From: Acidobacteriota bacterium
Lineage (GTDB): Bacteria > Acidobacteriota > Blastocatellia > Pyrinomonadales > Pyrinomonadaceae
Reading direction: 5' to 3'
DNA: 53,335 nucleotides
Assembly (NCBI GenBank): GCA_029557535.1
Contig: JAKQII010000103.1
Coordinates: 1-53,335, forward strand
Shown here: positions 43,496 through 51,934 of the stretch, piece after piece
Numbering within the stretch: the first letter of the stretch is position 1
Layout of the letters: each line of letters starts with the position of its first letter
Program-made: the position numbers and the translations under genes
Notes under the pieces: generated by a model
Databases searched by the model: none
Seen by the model: only the letters and a program-made list of their open reading frames with translations
Told to the model about the DNA's origin: nothing

Positions 43496-43592
43496 GTAGA
43501 CGGTAGACGGTAGGCGGTAGGCAGTAGACGGTAGACGGTAGGCGGTAGACAGTAGAAATCCGAAATCCCAATTCCGAAATCCGAAATCCCAC
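43496..43592. repeat. Two adjoining heptamer arrays filling the spacer between amidohydrolase and nitroreductase genes
   Basis: Nine 7-bp units of the GTAGACG/GTAGGCG type run from 43496 to 43558. They begin at the base after the amidohydrolase stop. Five units of another family (ATCCGAA/ATCCCAA) follow from 43558 to 43592. The nitroreductase stop begins at 43594, so the arrays fill the whole spacer. Confidence 0.9.
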
Positions 43593-43593
43593 A

Positions 43594-44259
43594 TCAAACC
43601 ACATTCATGATCTCGTTGAGACTCTTGCGCTTGATGTCGGGGACCTTCGCGTCGGCCGCCGGGTAGCCGACCGGAATCAGGACGAACGGCACTTCCGTCT
43701 TTGGGCGCCCGAGGATCTCCTGCAGGAACTTCATCGGGCTCGGCGTATGCGTCAGAGTCGCCAGACCGGCCGTATGTAGCGCCGCGAGCAGCATTCCGAC
43801 GGCGATTCCGACCGACTCCTGCGAATAATAGGTCGGCTCGGGTTCACCCGATTCGTTCACTGACGTGATCCGGAAGACGACGATCAAGTAGGGAGCGATC
43901 TCAAGGAACGGCTTGTGTTCGTCGGTCCCGAGCGGTGCCAGCCGGCGCAGCCATTTCTTGCTCATCCTGCCGTGATAGCTCTCGTGTTCTTCGTGTTCAG
44001 CGGCTTCGCGTATCCGCGCCTTCGTCTCCGGATCGCGAACGACGACGAATCGCCAAGGCTGCATGTTCGCTCCTGAAGGAGCTGTTCCCGCCGTGCGGAT
44101 CGCGGTTTCGATGATCTCGATCGGAACCGGTTCGTTGGAGAATTCGCGCACCGTGCGGCGTCGATTCATCAGTTCGAAGAATTTAGTGACGCGCTCGATC
44201 TGCTCCGATTCGGACGTGGTGCGCTCGAAATCGAGCGCCTTGAGAACTGGGTTGGACAT
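43594..44259 (-). CDS. Nitroreductase-family flavoprotein, iodotyrosine deiodinase-like
   Basis: FMN-dependent nitroreductase-fold enzyme of 221 aa. The N-terminal signature RRRTVREFSNEPVP and GTAPSGANMQPWRFVVV binds FMN. The lid region EEHESYHGRMSKKWLRRLAP carries the Glu, Tyr and Lys arrangement known from iodotyrosine deiodinases. ATLTHTPSPMKFLQEILGRP and the C-terminal PVGYPA complete the match. Bacterial relatives reductively dehalogenate halotyrosines in vitro; the natural role is unclear. It is downstream of xth on the same strand, 35 bp away. Confidence 0.87.
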   Translation of the reverse strand: MSNPVLKALDFERTTSESEQIERVTKFFELMNRRRTVREFSNEPVPIEIIETAIRTAGTAPSGANMQPWRFVVVRDPETKARIREAAEHEEHESYHGRMSKKWLRRLAPLGTDEHKPFLEIAPYLIVVFRITSVNESGEPEPTYYSQESVGIAVGMLLAALHTAGLATLTHTPSPMKFLQEILGRPKTEVPFVLIPVGYPAADAKVPDIKRKSLNEIMNVV

Positions 44260-44294: not shown

Positions 44295-45065
44295 CTACAC
44301 TTCAAAGTCGGCGACCACGGGCGTATGGTCCGAAGGCCGATCCCATGTTCGCGGATCGCGATCGATCCAGCAGTTCGTGCACTTGTCCGCAAGACTCTGA
44401 CTCGTCCAAATATGATCGATCCGCAGGCCCTGGTTCTTCGGAAACGCGCCTTCGCGATAATTCCACCACGAGAATTCCTGCAGGTCGCCGTTGATTTTTC
44501 GGTAGACGTCGGTGAACCCCCACTGCCTGACGTGATGGATCGCCGCGCGCTCCGGTTTCGAAAAATGGAGCTTACCTTCCCAATTCTTGACGCTCCAGAC
44601 GTCACGCTCATCGGGCGCGACGTTGAAGTCGCCGCATAAGAGTACGTCCGATTCCTTCGGGCATTCATCGTCGAACATCCGGCGCAGACGCTGCAGCCAA
44701 TCGAGTTTGAACGTGAATTTGTCGGTCCAAAGTTCAGTCCCGTTTGGAATGTACGTATTGACGATGCGAACTCCTTTGATCGTGACCGCGATCAGCCGCT
44801 TCGGTGCGTCCGGCGCATCGTCCGCGAAGTTGTACTGCGGATTTTCGATTGGGAAACGCGAGACGATCGCCACTCCGTTATAGCTCTTCTCGCCCATGAA
44901 GACGGCATTGTAACCAACGTTCAGAAAATCCAATTGCGGGAATTTCTCGTCAACGCACTTTGTCTCCTGCATGCAAAGTACGTCCGTCCCGGTTGCCTCA
45001 AGCCACTGCAGTACGGCTTCAAGTCGGATCGCGATCGAATTTACGTTCCAGGTTGCAAGTTTCAT
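44295..45065 (-). CDS. xth: Exodeoxyribonuclease III
   Basis: AP endonuclease / 3'-5' exonuclease of base-excision repair, 256 aa. It has the EEP-fold motifs ATWNVNSI, MQETK with catalytic Glu, GDFNVAPDERDVW and the terminal SDHTPVVADF. The ATG at 45065 is followed upstream by a heptamer array that separates it from the methyltransferase gene. Confidence 0.95.
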   Translation of the reverse strand: MKLATWNVNSIAIRLEAVLQWLEATGTDVLCMQETKCVDEKFPQLDFLNVGYNAVFMGEKSYNGVAIVSRFPIENPQYNFADDAPDAPKRLIAVTIKGVRIVNTYIPNGTELWTDKFTFKLDWLQRLRRMFDDECPKESDVLLCGDFNVAPDERDVWSVKNWEGKLHFSKPERAAIHHVRQWGFTDVYRKINGDLQEFSWWNYREGAFPKNQGLRIDHIWTSQSLADKCTNCWIDRDPRTWDRPSDHTPVVADFEV

Positions 45066-45069
45066 AAAA

Positions 45070-45214
45070 GTAGTCAGTAGTCGGTAGACAGTAGACAGTA
45101 GACAGTGGTCGGTGGTCGGTGGTCAGTGGTCAGCGGCCGGTTGCAACTAACCGACTCTCTCCAAGCTTTCAGACTGTCCACTATCCACTGTCCACTATCG
45201 ACTATCCACTCTCC
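45070..45214. repeat. Inverted pair of heptamer arrays between xth and the methyltransferase gene
   Basis: Left arm 45070-45139 has ten 7-bp units (GTAGTCA, GTAGACA, GTGGTCG, GTGGTCA variants). Right arm 45173-45214 has six units (ACTGTCC, ACTATCC variants) which are the reverse complement of the same family. A 33-bp unique core separates them. The methyltransferase stop lies 1 bp beyond. Confidence 0.9.
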
Positions 45215-45215
45215 C

Positions 45216-46142
45216 TCACTGTTTCTTCCAGTTCCTTTCGTGGAACACTCCGTTTTCGAACCCTTGGATCGAGTTGTCGAATTCTGCGAGTTCCAGCCGC
45301 TTTTGTGCGAGCAGGCAATAGCTTTCATCTTTTTCGATCGCACAGAAATCGCGTCCTAGCTTCTTCGCGACCACGGCAGTCGTGCCGCTACCGGCGAACG
45401 GGTCGAGGATCTGATCGCCCTCGTTCGTTGACGCCAGTATCACCTTCGCCAGCAACTTTTCAGGCTTCTGCGTTGGATGATCCGTGTTTTCGGGCATTGA
45501 CCAGAACGGCACCGTCAGATCGGTCCAGACGTTCGAAGGGTGTGTCAGCCGATGGTTTCCGTCGTCAGCGCGCTCCCAGTCTTTGGGCTCTCCGTCGATC
45601 GTGTACGGAGCGATCACGCGCCGTTTTATCTTCACGGCGTCGATGTTGAAGGTGTACGAATCCGAGGCCGTGAAGAACCAAATGTCTTCGGACGAATTCT
45701 TCCAGTTTCGCTTCGCGCCGCGGCCCTTTTCGCGTTCCCAGGTGATACGGTTCTGCAGCTTGAAATAACGCGATCCGGCCCGTTCGATCGCGGCCGACGA
45801 CCGCCAGTCGCCGCAAATATAAACCGACGCCGTCGATCGCAGGAGCCGGACGCACTTGCCGAGCCACGTGCCGAGCCAATTCTCGTAATCCTCGACCGAT
45901 GTTTGCCTGAAACTCTCCTCGCCGAACGACTTCGTCAAGTTGTACGGCGGATCGGCAAACAGCAGATCGAACGACGCCTCCGGGAACTGATCCAGAACGG
46001 TGAGCGCGTCGCCGCAGATGACCTGATTTCTGAACTTGATCGTGTCAGTCCGCAGGTTCGCTCGCAACCGCCCGACCTCGTCCGGTCCGATCTCGATCGT
46101 TCGGTTTCGCGGGGCGCGCGTCTTCGTTTGCGGCGCGGTCAT
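45216..46142 (-). CDS. Site-specific DNA methyltransferase (beta-class, N4-cytosine/N6-adenine type)
   Basis: The 308-aa enzyme has motif IV DPPYNL at residues 64-69 before motif I FAGSGTT at 249-255, the beta-class order. HPTQKPEKLL precedes motif I. ASVYICGDWRSS and ITWEREKGRG also fit. It probably methylates adenine-N6 or cytosine-N4 at a short site. No restriction endonuclease gene is adjacent, so it is an orphan methyltransferase. It follows the M20 peptidase gene by 8 bp on the same strand. Confidence 0.92.
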   Translation of the reverse strand: MTAPQTKTRAPRNRTIEIGPDEVGRLRANLRTDTIKFRNQVICGDALTVLDQFPEASFDLLFADPPYNLTKSFGEESFRQTSVEDYENWLGTWLGKCVRLLRSTASVYICGDWRSSAAIERAGSRYFKLQNRITWEREKGRGAKRNWKNSSEDIWFFTASDSYTFNIDAVKIKRRVIAPYTIDGEPKDWERADDGNHRLTHPSNVWTDLTVPFWSMPENTDHPTQKPEKLLAKVILASTNEGDQILDPFAGSGTTAVVAKKLGRDFCAIEKDESYCLLAQKRLELAEFDNSIQGFENGVFHERNWKKQ

Positions 46143-48742: not shown

Positions 48743-48773
48743 GCGCAGCCACCCATTGGCTGCGTTTTCATTT
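48743..48773 (+). terminator. Rho-independent terminator after the 86-aa gene
   Basis: Perfect 7-bp stem CGCAGCC (48744-48750) / GGCTGCG (48758-48764), 7-nt loop, then TTTTCATTT. It runs directly into the heptamer array. Confidence 0.75.
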
Positions 48774-48880
48774 GCGATTTTCAATTTTCGATTTGCGATT
48801 GATCGGCTGGTCCGATTCGTCACCGATTGGTTCTTGCGCGATTTCAATCGCAAATCGCAAATCGAAAATCGCAAATCAAA
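48771..48880. repeat. Inverted heptamer arrays overlapping the dapF 3' end
   Basis: Left arm 48771-48805 has four to five units (TTTGCGA, TTTTCAA, TTTTCGA, TTTGCGA). Right arm 48846-48880 has five units (AATCGCA, AATCGAA, AATCAAA), the reverse complement of the same family. The dapF stop codon (48876-48878) lies in the last unit. Confidence 0.9.
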
Positions 48881-49718
48881 AAGTTCCGCTGAAAATAAAG
48901 TCGGCGCGGCCGAGAATCATCATCTCGTCGTCGTCGCGCCAGGTGACGACCGTCGTCCCGCCTTCGGAATGGACGTTGACACGCCGGCCGCTTTCGCCGC
49001 GGAAGGCCGTGAGGACAGCGGCTCCGCTTGAACAGGTTCCGGACGCCGCGGTCTCGCCGGCACCGCGTTCCCAGATCCGAAGCTCGATGTTCTCGCGGTC
49101 GACGACTTTCACGAAGACGATGTTGGCGCGGTCCGGAAACGCAGAATGAGTTTCAAGTTCCCGACCGATGCTCCGCCAGTCGAAATCGAAGTTCTGGACA
49201 AAAACGCAGGCGACCGGATTTCCGACGTTGACGCATGAGACCTGAAGCGAATGGTTTGCCAACGCAACCGGCTGGTCGATCACCGAATGCAACCGATCTT
49301 CTGACGCGAACGGAATCTCTTCGGACGCGAGCTTCGGCTTTCCGATCTCGGCGTCAAAGAGATAATGCCCGGCGCCTTCGGAGCTGACGAGCCTGTAGTT
49401 TTTGATCCCGGTCCGCATCTTGAGACGCAGGTTCGGTTCAGACCACAAACCCTTGAAATAGGCGTAGGCGACCGCGCATCGCGTGCCGTTTCCGGAAAAC
49501 CCGGCCTCGCTGCCATCGGGATTGATGATCCGGCAGGAGAAGTCCGCCGCCGGGTCATCGATCTTCTCGAGGATCGCGATACCGTCCGATCCGACGCCCG
49601 TGTGGCGGTTGCAAAACGACTTCGTGAACTCGCCGACATCGCTGACATTCGCCAGTTGCGAAGCTTCAATGACGACGTAATCGTTCCCGAATCCGTGGAA
49701 TTTTGAAAAGTTGATCAT
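48876..49718 (-). CDS. dapF: Diaminopimelate epimerase
   Basis: Lysine and peptidoglycan precursor enzyme converting LL- to meso-diaminopimelate, 280 aa. Both catalytic cysteines are present: Cys81 in GNGTRCAVA and Cys229 in SGTCSSGA. The start is MINFSKFHGFGNDY (ATG 49718); the frame open upstream to 49898 runs through repeats and is rejected. No good ribosome-binding site is seen. Its stop codon lies inside a heptamer repeat unit, so the repeat may have moved into or eroded the original 3' end. Confidence 0.95.
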   Translation of the reverse strand: MINFSKFHGFGNDYVVIEASQLANVSDVGEFTKSFCNRHTGVGSDGIAILEKIDDPAADFSCRIINPDGSEAGFSGNGTRCAVAYAYFKGLWSEPNLRLKMRTGIKNYRLVSSEGAGHYLFDAEIGKPKLASEEIPFASEDRLHSVIDQPVALANHSLQVSCVNVGNPVACVFVQNFDFDWRSIGRELETHSAFPDRANIVFVKVVDRENIELRIWERGAGETAASGTCSSGAAVLTAFRGESGRRVNVHSEGGTTVVTWRDDDEMMILGRADFIFSGTF

Positions 49719-49726
49719 GACCGGAA

Positions 49727-49754
49727 GTAGACGGTAAACGGTATTCGGTAGACA
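49727..49754. repeat. Heptamer array just upstream of dapF
   Basis: Four 7-bp units (GTAGACG, GTAAACG, GTATTCG, GTAGACA) end 8 bp before the dapF start codon. The family is the same as at 43496 and 45070. It is inverted relative to the array at 49967-50064. Confidence 0.75.
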
Positions 49755-49966
49755 GCACCTTTCCGTGCAGGCGTCAGCAGAACTCAAGCGGCTCCGCCGC
49801 CCGACAGGTCGAAATCGCGGCACAGCCGCACGAGAATCTACGTAGCCGATCCCGGAAAAGCAAGCTTTTCCCCACATCCGGGTGGCAAGCCGCAACATGT
49901 TCGTTTCCGCGGACCGCCGTAATAGCTGATAACGGATAGTGTAAAGCTGATAACCCGACCACCGTT
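49755..49966. other. Core between two inverted heptamer arrays
   Basis: About 210 bp without a gene. It contains a perfect palindrome GGAAAAGC-AA-GCTTTTCC at about 49853-49870 and a 21-bp spaced repeat of AGCTGAT (49924 and 49945), again a multiple of 7. No coding frame with family similarity is visible. Confidence 0.6.
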
Positions 49967-50064
49967 CACTACTTACTGCTTACTGCTCACTGCTTACTTC
50001 TCACTGCTCACTTCTCACTGCCTACTGCTCACTTCTCACTGCTCACTGCTCACTATTTACTTCC
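49967..50064. repeat. Fourteen-unit heptamer array overlapping the M28 peptidase 3' end
   Basis: Fourteen consecutive 7-bp units of the CACTGCT/TACTGCT/CACTTCT type run without a phase break. The M28 peptidase stop codon (50057-50059) lies at the junction of the last two units. The reverse complement (GTGAGCA) fits the same GTRRRCR-like pattern as the other arrays. Confidence 0.92.
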
Positions 50065-51826
50065 TCGCCTGCGGTTTCACCTTGAACGTCAGCGTCTCGT
50101 CGCCGCGCTTGACGACGATCTCGTATTCGACGTCCGCCTTTAGGTCGCCGAGTACGTACACGTAGTCCTGAACGCTGCGGATCTCCTTTCCGGCGAATTT
50201 GATGATCTTGTCACCGCCCTTGATTCCGGCGATCGCCGCCGGGCCGCCATCGCGGACACCGTCGAGCAACATTCCGTCGTTCGATTCGCCGTAGCCCGGA
50301 ACGACGCCGATCGTCACCGCAAATCCGCGGCGGCCTTCGCCCTGGCCGGAACTCTGCGCGACCTTGAACGTCGGCCGTTTCGGGTTCCAATCGAGATAAT
50401 TGCCGATGTCGACGACATACTCGACCAGCGTCCTAAGTCCCGCGTAGTTGATCTTTTCGGCGGTGTCCGACGGTTTATGGTAATCCTCGTGGGTTCCGGT
50501 GAAGAAGAACAGCACCGGCATTTGCTTCGAATAGAAAGACGCGTGGTCCGACGGTCCATAACCGTCCTCGCTCAGCTGCAGCGAAAACCGCTGGTAACTT
50601 TCCGGCGCGGTCGTCGTGAAACTCGCTCCCTTTCCTTTTCCGTAAACCGGCGGGATGACGTCATTCTTCTTGGTCACGAGATCGCGCCATTCTTCCGCCG
50701 TTCCAATGCCGCCGACATTGAGTTTCTTATCCTTCAAACGCCCGACCATGTCCAGATTCAGCATCGCGATCGTCTTGTCGAGCGGGTAAAGCGGATTGTT
50801 GACGTAGTATTTCGATCCGAGCAGGCCTTCTTCTTCGCCGCTGAAGCCGATGAAGATCAGCGTGCGCTTGTTGTTGCGCTTCGCGGCGTATTGCCGCGCG
50901 ACCTCGATCAGCGCCGCCGTGCCGGAAGCGTTGTCGTCCGCGCCGTGATGGATCTCGGTCGAGTTGACCGCGAGGCTGCCCTGACCGCCGTGGCCGAGAT
51001 GGTCGTAATGCGCGCCGAAAACGATCGCCTCGTTCTTCAGTTTCGGATCGGTTCCCGGAAGATATCCGACGACGTTGTACGCGTCGGCGGTCTTCTTCAC
51101 GAGGTCGATCGAACCAGAAGCAGAGGCGGTGCTGAATGCGGACTTGATTTGGACAAATTTTGCTTCCGAAACGACCATCACCGGAATTCCCGCGTCTCCG
51201 AGATTGTCGTAGTTCAGCTTCTGGTATTTCGAAAGGTCACCGACGATAATCAGTCCTTTCGCGCCGGCGTCCCGCGCAATCGTCGCTTTGCGTCGATTAT
51301 CGTACGCCGAAAAATTGCGATCTGGAACTGAGTCCGAAGCGACGGCAATTCGGCCTTTGACATCAAGACCTCGATAGTCGTCATGCCCGAGAGTCGGCGC
51401 CGAGATTCCGTAACCGACGTCGATGAGCGTCGCGTTCTCAAACGACGAAGCGCTCGAGAACGCGAGCGGCATCCAGTCCTCGCCGACCTTGAGCGCGATC
51501 TTTTCCCCCTTTGCATTGCCGCGAAACGACAAAACGTTCGAATCACCGAGCGTCATCGCGGTCACGTGCGGAAACGTCTGCAAATAGCTCGCCTTGCCGA
51601 GCGCGTCCTTCGACAGCGGTTTCAGCTTGTACTGGCGGAACATCTTCTCAACATATTTCGCCGCGAGGTTTGCGCCGGGCTCACCCGTGCGGCGCCCCGC
51701 CAGCGCGTCCGACGCCAGATACGCGACGCTCGCGCGAAGATTGCGGTCGACCACGTCGACCTTTTGCGCCGGAATGCTGAGAACGAAGGAGAGAAGAAGA
51801 AGGAAAGAAAGAATATGCTTAATCAT
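50057..51826 (-). CDS. Secreted M28 family aminopeptidase with PA and PDZ domains
   Basis: Exported zinc peptidase of 589 aa. It has a signal peptide (about 1-21) and a PA-like insertion (about 115-225, RKATIARDAGAKGLIIVGD). The M28 catalytic domain follows, with zinc ligands in GAHYDHLG, HHGADDNASG, FSGEEEGLLG, LNLDMVG and SDHASF. A C-terminal PDZ domain occupies about 490-585 (PAAIAGIKGGDKIIKFAGK). The ATG at 51826 (MIKHILSFLLLLSF) is preferred over an upstream frame that runs through the repeat at 51841-51912. It follows the PD40 gene on the same strand. Confidence 0.92.
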   Translation of the reverse strand: MIKHILSFLLLLSFVLSIPAQKVDVVDRNLRASVAYLASDALAGRRTGEPGANLAAKYVEKMFRQYKLKPLSKDALGKASYLQTFPHVTAMTLGDSNVLSFRGNAKGEKIALKVGEDWMPLAFSSASSFENATLIDVGYGISAPTLGHDDYRGLDVKGRIAVASDSVPDRNFSAYDNRRKATIARDAGAKGLIIVGDLSKYQKLNYDNLGDAGIPVMVVSEAKFVQIKSAFSTASASGSIDLVKKTADAYNVVGYLPGTDPKLKNEAIVFGAHYDHLGHGGQGSLAVNSTEIHHGADDNASGTAALIEVARQYAAKRNNKRTLIFIGFSGEEEGLLGSKYYVNNPLYPLDKTIAMLNLDMVGRLKDKKLNVGGIGTAEEWRDLVTKKNDVIPPVYGKGKGASFTTTAPESYQRFSLQLSEDGYGPSDHASFYSKQMPVLFFFTGTHEDYHKPSDTAEKINYAGLRTLVEYVVDIGNYLDWNPKRPTFKVAQSSGQGEGRRGFAVTIGVVPGYGESNDGMLLDGVRDGGPAAIAGIKGGDKIIKFAGKEIRSVQDYVYVLGDLKADVEYEIVVKRGDETLTFKVKPQARK

Positions 51827-51840
51827 GACTCTAATGTCGC

Positions 51841-51912
51841 GATTCCAAGATTCCAAAATTCCAAATTCCAACAAGCAAATCTTGGAATCCTGGAATCTTG
51901 AAATCATGGAAT
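51841..51912. repeat. Inverted short-period repeat between the PD40 and M28 genes
   Basis: Left arm 51841-51871 has four ATTCCA-type units at 7-8 bp spacing. Right arm 51891-51912 has four TGGAATC-type units at 8 bp spacing. They are reverse complements around a 19-bp core. The arm lies only 15 bp upstream of the M28 start codon. Confidence 0.8.
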
Positions 51913-51934
51913 TACCTGTGATCGCGTACCGCGA

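What the first reader, a model, noticed from the sequence alone, without database searches (positions are those of the whole stretch)
49967..50064. Fourteen-unit array provides the M28 peptidase stop codon
The array runs through 14 units in constant phase, and the M28 stop TAA (50057-50059) lies at the junction of its last two units. This is the second independent case in this window of a gene terminating within a repeat unit, and elsewhere arrays begin 0-1 bp from stop codons (43496, 45214, 43592). Such precise abutment suggests insertion preferring stop codons, expansion limited by purifying selection at coding ends, or a role in 3' processing.
Basis: partly seen in the sequence, partly recalled or inferred. 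Interest (0 to 1): 0.6.

Follow-up and report, generated by a model that had tools for sequence, protein, structure and literature searches.

The report
Stop-codon-abutting heptamer repeat arrays
Short 7-base repeats in this acidobacterium sit right after the stop codons of genes far more often than chance and with a fixed strand bias; the peptidase's stop codon is older than the repeat beside it, and similar repeats are already known from Xanthomonas and Nostoc.

Summary
The array is real. In the M28 sense (minus) strand it reads AGTAAAT(AGTGAGC/AGTAAGC)n, about 13 units, and the M28 stop TAA is in register with the TGA/TAA/TAG that every unit carries. But the array does not supply the stop: orthologues across Pyrinomonadaceae, most without an array, end at the same '...ARK*' position. 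The wider observation holds. In 0.95 Mb of the genome, 32 of 71 heptamer arrays lie within 7 bp of a stop (6.3 expected). Under a stricter null (whole elements slid, room kept for a ribosome site), 63 of 123 co-directional elements in three genomes touch a stop (38.2 expected, maximum 52 in 4,000). Arrays at stops are G>C in sense (32:5; 39:2 in a congener), even those without a complementary partner. About half have an inverted partner and form long hairpins; the focal array does not. Units turn over between species while the position persists. The closest known kind is the four-unit G-rich heptamer arrays of Xanthomonas and Nostoc; here nearly all arrays at stops lack a G3-quadruplex motif, so that fold cannot explain the placement. 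No U-tract follows the hairpins, so they are not canonical terminators. Function is inferred only.

The parts
49967..50064 (-). Focal heptamer array, unit AGTGAGC/AGTAAGC in the M28 sense strand (ACTGCTC family on +); stop-side arm
   Evidence: TRF; unit list and shuffles
50057..50059 (-). M28 stop codon TAA, in register with the stop triplet of each unit; ancestral position
50057..51826 (-). M28 peptidase gene (PA, M28, PDZ); longest ORF runs to 51907 but its first 27 residues overlap an inverted 8-mer repeat
49727..49750 (-). Weak start-side arm (sense TACCGAATACCGTTTACCGTCTAC, GTCTACC family) 8 bp upstream of the dapF start
   Evidence: score 9.2, 0 of 1,000 shuffles reach it
48876..49718 (-). 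dapF (diaminopimelate epimerase), next gene downstream of M28; start at 49718 (MINFSKFHGFGNDY)
48844..48881 (-). 5' arm of a heptamer hairpin (GATTTGC family) overlapping the dapF stop
   Evidence: RNA fold z -7.9
48765..48802 (-). 3' arm of the same hairpin, 92% complementary
45173..45214 (-). 5' arm (AGTGGAT/AGTGGAC family) 1 bp after the methylase-gene stop at 45216
   Evidence: RNA fold z -6.7
45069..45136 (-). 3' arm ending 3 bp before the endonuclease/phosphatase-gene start at 45065
43496..43556 (+). GTAGACG array starting at the amidohydrolase stop (0 bp)
43555..43595 (-). GGATTTC array (sense of the convergent nitroreductase gene) overlapping its stop at 43594; does not pair with the GTAGACG array
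   Evidence: RNA fold z +2.6
51832..51914 (-). Inverted 8-mer pair (GATTCCAA/TTGGAATC) between the PD40 gene stop (51935) and the M28 start

Best explanation
The array is the stop-side arm of a repetitive extragenic element that occupies the gap between M28 and dapF. This class of element (arms of about 4.5 heptamers, G-rich strand in sense next to the stop, C-rich strand next to the following start, often inverted partners) recurs after gene stops throughout Pyrinomonadaceae. Shown: placement, polarity, unit turnover, and the age of the stop. Inferred: the element came to lie in the junction, the array lengthened by slippage, and growth into the gene was checked by selection. The AGTRRGC unit can merge with a '...AAG TAA' gene end because each unit carries a stop triplet, and a 7-bp period puts stops in all three frames. 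Inferred with less confidence: the class acts in RNA as a 3'-end structure or spacer after the stop, like stop-proximal REP elements. The focal copy has no pairing partner and is most likely a lengthened, non-hairpin derivative.
For: Placement: 32 of 71 at stops vs 6.3; 63 of 123 vs 38.2 under the strict null, and 41 of 90 vs 11.9 where more than 40 nt of free gap remains. Polarity 32:5 at stops and 12:2 reversed at starts; 39:2 in congener G002; holds for arrays without a partner, 15:3 and 13:1. Lower density between divergent genes, 0.25 vs 0.74-0.79 arrays per kb. Conserved C-terminus with or without array. 22 of 48 orthologue 3' ends carry an inverted repeat, 15 of them starting -7..+10 from the stop, none in shuffled or coding controls. 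Syntenic junctions with different repeats or none in G002, e.g. gap 27 vs 180 bp. M28-dapF almost touch in L142. In-register stop in 9 of 11 AGTGAGC-family cases listed (P 1e-6; in some the array itself may have supplied the stop).
Against: The focal array folds worse than shuffles (z +1.9), the whole gap folds like shuffles (z 0.0), and no complementary arm is found. No U-tract after the 3' arms. G012 shows weak polarity (10:9) and no significant excess under the strict null. No expression data. Start-side arm of the focal element is weak.
Confidence: 0.6

Rival explanations
1. Neutral repeats tolerated wherever they do not hit genes; because gaps are short, both edges touch gene ends.
For: Inverted elements in convergent gaps show no excess (33 vs 30.0) and G012 none; gaps are short.
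Against: Excess persists where more than 40 nt of free gap remains (41 of 90 vs 11.9) and a neutral model does not predict strand polarity.
Confidence: 0.2
2. The inverted arrays are intrinsic transcription terminators.
For: Long stable hairpins after stops; one junction has a GC hairpin with a T-run in G000 and a heptamer hairpin in G002.
Against: No T-rich tail (T 0.30 after the 3' arm vs 0.27 in the gap, 2 of 28 with TTTT); half of the arrays, the focal one included, have no partner.
Confidence: 0.12
3. G-quadruplex elements as proposed for Xanthomonas and Nostoc.
For: Same polarity and place (PMC4692102); 29 of 43 stop arrays in G002 match a two-G motif.
Against: G3 motif in 1 of 44, 0 of 43 and 0 of 20 stop arrays; focal array has neither a G3 nor a G2 motif.
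Confidence: 0.04
4. Spread by a transposase of the RAYT type, with target choice at stops.
For: 11 Y1 transposase matches in the genome; dispersed copies; patchy families across genera.
Against: The three Y1 genes examined have no strong heptamer array within 350 bp; two have a different palindrome, CCACTAGC..GCTAGTGG, next to them.
Confidence: 0.1

Closest known systems
GGGAATC / GGGGA(C/T)T heptamer repeats of Xanthomonas and Nostoc (Rehm et al. 2015, PMC4692102)
   Same: 7-bp unit, preference for four units, G-rich strand in sense near or overlapping the stop and C-rich sense before starts, inverted pairs, depletion between divergent genes
   Different: Here many unit families coexist and are replaced between congeners, and nearly all stop arrays lack a G3-quadruplex motif
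TAACTGA repeats of marine Beggiatoaceae (MacGregor 2015, PMC4679880)
   Same: Intergenic 7-mers with stop triplets in all frames, so overlap with a gene end is short
   Different: There mostly just upstream of starts and a single unit; here at stops and many units
REP elements near stops in Escherichia coli (as summarised in PMC12306157)
   Same: Repetitive hairpins within 15 nt of a stop, reported to stall ribosomes and lower expression
   Different: Arms here are tandem heptamers; half of the arrays form no hairpin

Membership tests
G-rich heptamer repeats (PMC4692102) | Period 7, mostly about four units | tested here: met
   Commonest length 4.5 units in G000, G002, G012; focal array is longer
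G-rich heptamer repeats (PMC4692102) | G-rich strand in sense near the stop | tested here: met
   32:5 and 39:2
G-rich heptamer repeats (PMC4692102) | Runs of three or more G able to form a quadruplex | tested here: not met
   Focal none; 1 of 107 stop arrays in three genomes
REP/REPIN | Palindromic or inverted structure | tested here: not met
   Focal array has no partner, though about half of the class has
REP/REPIN | Linked Y1 (RAYT) transposase flanked by the repeat | tested here: not met
   Three Y1 genes examined, flanks lack strong heptamer arrays; others not examined
Intrinsic terminator | GC hairpin followed by a U-tract | tested here: not met
TAACTGA repeats | Unit TAACTGA, next to starts | tested here: not met
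   Unit AGTGAGC at a stop
Stop-proximal REP-like regulators | Change in translation or mRNA stability of the upstream gene | not testable with these tools
   Needs expression data

The most novel reading that the evidence does not exclude
A clade-wide 3'-end code: bacteria of this family place a strand-polar heptamer arm directly after many stop codons, with position and polarity conserved but the unit sequence free to change, implying a machinery that reads period and strand rather than sequence.
Probability: 0.15. Interest if true: 0.8.

Novelty: new variant of a known kind. Interest (0 to 1): 0.5.

Why it matters
Heptamer arrays near stops were put down to G-quadruplex formation in Xanthomonas and Nostoc. 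The same place, strand bias and length preference appear here with units that lack a G3-quadruplex motif and that differ between congeners, so something other than that fold must explain the rule. It also cautions that a stop inside a repeat need not mean that the repeat made the stop.

Tried and rejected
Array-made stop for M28 (rejected by orthologue C-termini; minus-strand loci were misread, corrected). Hairpin at the focal array. General stop-in-register rule: the stop triplet is only slightly periodic overall; it holds for the AGTGAGC family. Reverse-transcriptase, telomerase-like addition: no RVT_1 match in the genome. RAYT linkage. Known RNA family: none in Rfam. Chance: no arrays in 50 kb of E. 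coli, none in 140 kb of G034. My first sliding null overstated the excess, since paired arms fill the gap; searches give the stricter figure.

Full report
What is there. The window is contig C305 of a 4.77-Mb, 404-contig assembly whose relatives are Pyrinomonadaceae, Acidobacteriota. At 49967-50064 lies a heptamer array. In the sense strand of the M28 peptidase gene it reads AGTAAAT, then AGTGAGC, AGTGAGA, AGTAGGC and AGTAAGC units. The gene stop TAA (50057-50059) takes the place of the stop triplet that each unit carries. In the M28 frame further stops follow every 21 nt. This follows from a 7-bp unit holding TGA, TAA or TAG: stops appear in all three frames, so such an array can overlap a gene end only briefly. 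The same argument was made for TAACTGA repeats by MacGregor (PMC4679880).

The array did not make the stop. In relatives of the same family the M28 protein ends at the same aligned position, usually ...PAARK*, with no array (for example congener G001 and L118), or with unrelated repeats. The terminal Lys codon plus stop (AAG TAA, AAG TAG) resembles the start of the unit AGTAA/AGTAG, which could have helped the array to join there; this is inference. The gap between M28 and dapF is 338 bp here if dapF starts at 49718 (MINFSKFHGFGNDY), but the two genes almost touch in relative L142.

The rule is genome-wide. I wrote a simple gene caller and scanned 0.95 Mb of this genome. Period 7 dominates: 106 arrays, against 0-1 for periods 4-6 and 10-13, 19 for period 8 and 9 for period 9; period 14 is the harmonic. 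Of 71 arrays with both neighbours known, 32 lie within 7 bp of a stop, 6.3 expected, maximum 15 in 2,000 trials. The contigs not chosen for a repeat (17 against 3.1) and those chosen for it (15 against 3.3) agree. Because many arrays come in pairs that fill the gap, I also slid whole elements and kept 12 nt for a ribosome site: 63 of 123 co-directional elements in three genomes touch a stop, 38.2 expected, maximum 52 in 4,000; where more than 40 nt of free gap remains, 41 of 90 against 11.9. By genome, G000 and G002 are significant and G012 is not. The signal of periodicity rises from background on the stop triplet to 0.87 at the fifth base after it. Arrays are sparser between divergent genes (0.25 per kb) than in tandem (0.79) or convergent (0.74) gaps.

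Polarity. Arrays at stops are richer in G than C in sense, 32:5; those at starts are the reverse, 12:2. In G002 it is 39:2. Arrays without a complementary partner keep the bias, 15:3 and 13:1, so pairing alone does not explain it. In G012 the bias is weak, 10:9.

Hairpins. About half of the stop arrays have an inverted partner. In the window the dapF and methylase 3' ends fold far better than shuffles (z -7.9 and -6.7). The focal array and the convergent 43496-43595 pair fold worse than shuffles (z +1.9 and +2.6), and the whole M28-dapF gap like shuffles (z 0.0). Inverted repeats that start within 7 nt of a stop number 27 of 48 in G000, 29 of 72 in G002 and 26 of 67 in G012. Some arms are not heptamers but short dispersed palindromes. 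No T-rich tail follows.

Turnover. Among 48 M28 orthologues, 22 have an inverted repeat in the first 170 nt, 15 of them starting at -7..+10, with mostly different arm sequences; shuffled and coding controls have none. At syntenic junctions between the window and G002 the same place carries different repeats, or a repeat in one species only (gap 27 vs 180 bp; methylase, dapF and PD40 3' ends). The ACTGCTC family has 89 pattern matches here, none in three congeners, 173 in G004; the GATTTNN family has 95 here and 982 in G002.

Relation to known kinds. Rehm et al. (PMC4692102) describe G-rich heptamer arrays in Xanthomonas and Nostoc with a preference for four units, G-rich strand in sense near or over the stop, C-rich sense before starts, inverted pairs in Xanthomonas, and depletion between divergent genes. 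That is the same pattern; in their RNA data quadruplex-capable repeats lay more often at transcript ends. The difference is that a G3-quadruplex motif occurs in 1 of 44, 0 of 43 and 0 of 20 stop arrays here, and the focal array has neither a G3 nor a G2 motif. REP elements within 15 nt of a stop are reported to stall ribosomes in E. coli (PMC12306157), a plausible model for the paired members. No paper describing these arrays in Acidobacteriota was found in the library searched; subscription papers are not held.

Limits. Gene calls are mine and starts are approximate. The genome is a fragmented assembly and several contig ends lie inside arrays. The sample covers a fifth of the genome. No expression data were available, so function is inferred.

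Noticed in passing
window 51827-51907 (-): The first 27 residues of the longest M28 ORF are translated from an inverted 8-mer repeat; the true start is probably near 51826 (MIKHILSFLLL, a signal-peptide-like start).
   Followed up: partly
window 49719-49898 (-): The longest dapF ORF (340 aa) is over-extended by 60 residues into the repeat-bearing gap; orthologues indicate a start at 49718.
   Followed up: yes
L081 3114-3196, L086 16436-16656, L091 10769-10931, L095 19951-20000, L105 1-34: In these genes the array extends 14-21 nt upstream of the called stop, so here an array may really have supplied the stop; orthologues were not checked.
   Followed up: no
G000 contigs C33, C103, C132, C141, C270, C320 (starts), C45, C118 (ends): Contig ends fall inside or close to ACTGCTC arrays, which therefore seem to break the assembly; true array lengths are probably underestimated.
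   Followed up: no
L058 13006-13449 and L082 3249-3485: RAYT-like Y1 transposase genes with a palindrome CCACTAGCTTCAGCTAGTGG (or a close variant) near them, a likely REP family unrelated to the heptamers.
   Followed up: partly
L217, L222-L224, L228, L229 (G012): Dispersed palindromic arms such as GAGTGGCATAGACTTTAGTCTGTG and GTAAAGCAAACTGTTAGTTTGCG also start at stop codons, so stop-abutment is not limited to heptamers.
   Followed up: partly
G002, whole genome: About 980 matches to the GATTTNN array pattern in one congener, a very large expansion compared with 49-95 in the other three members of the genus.
   Followed up: no
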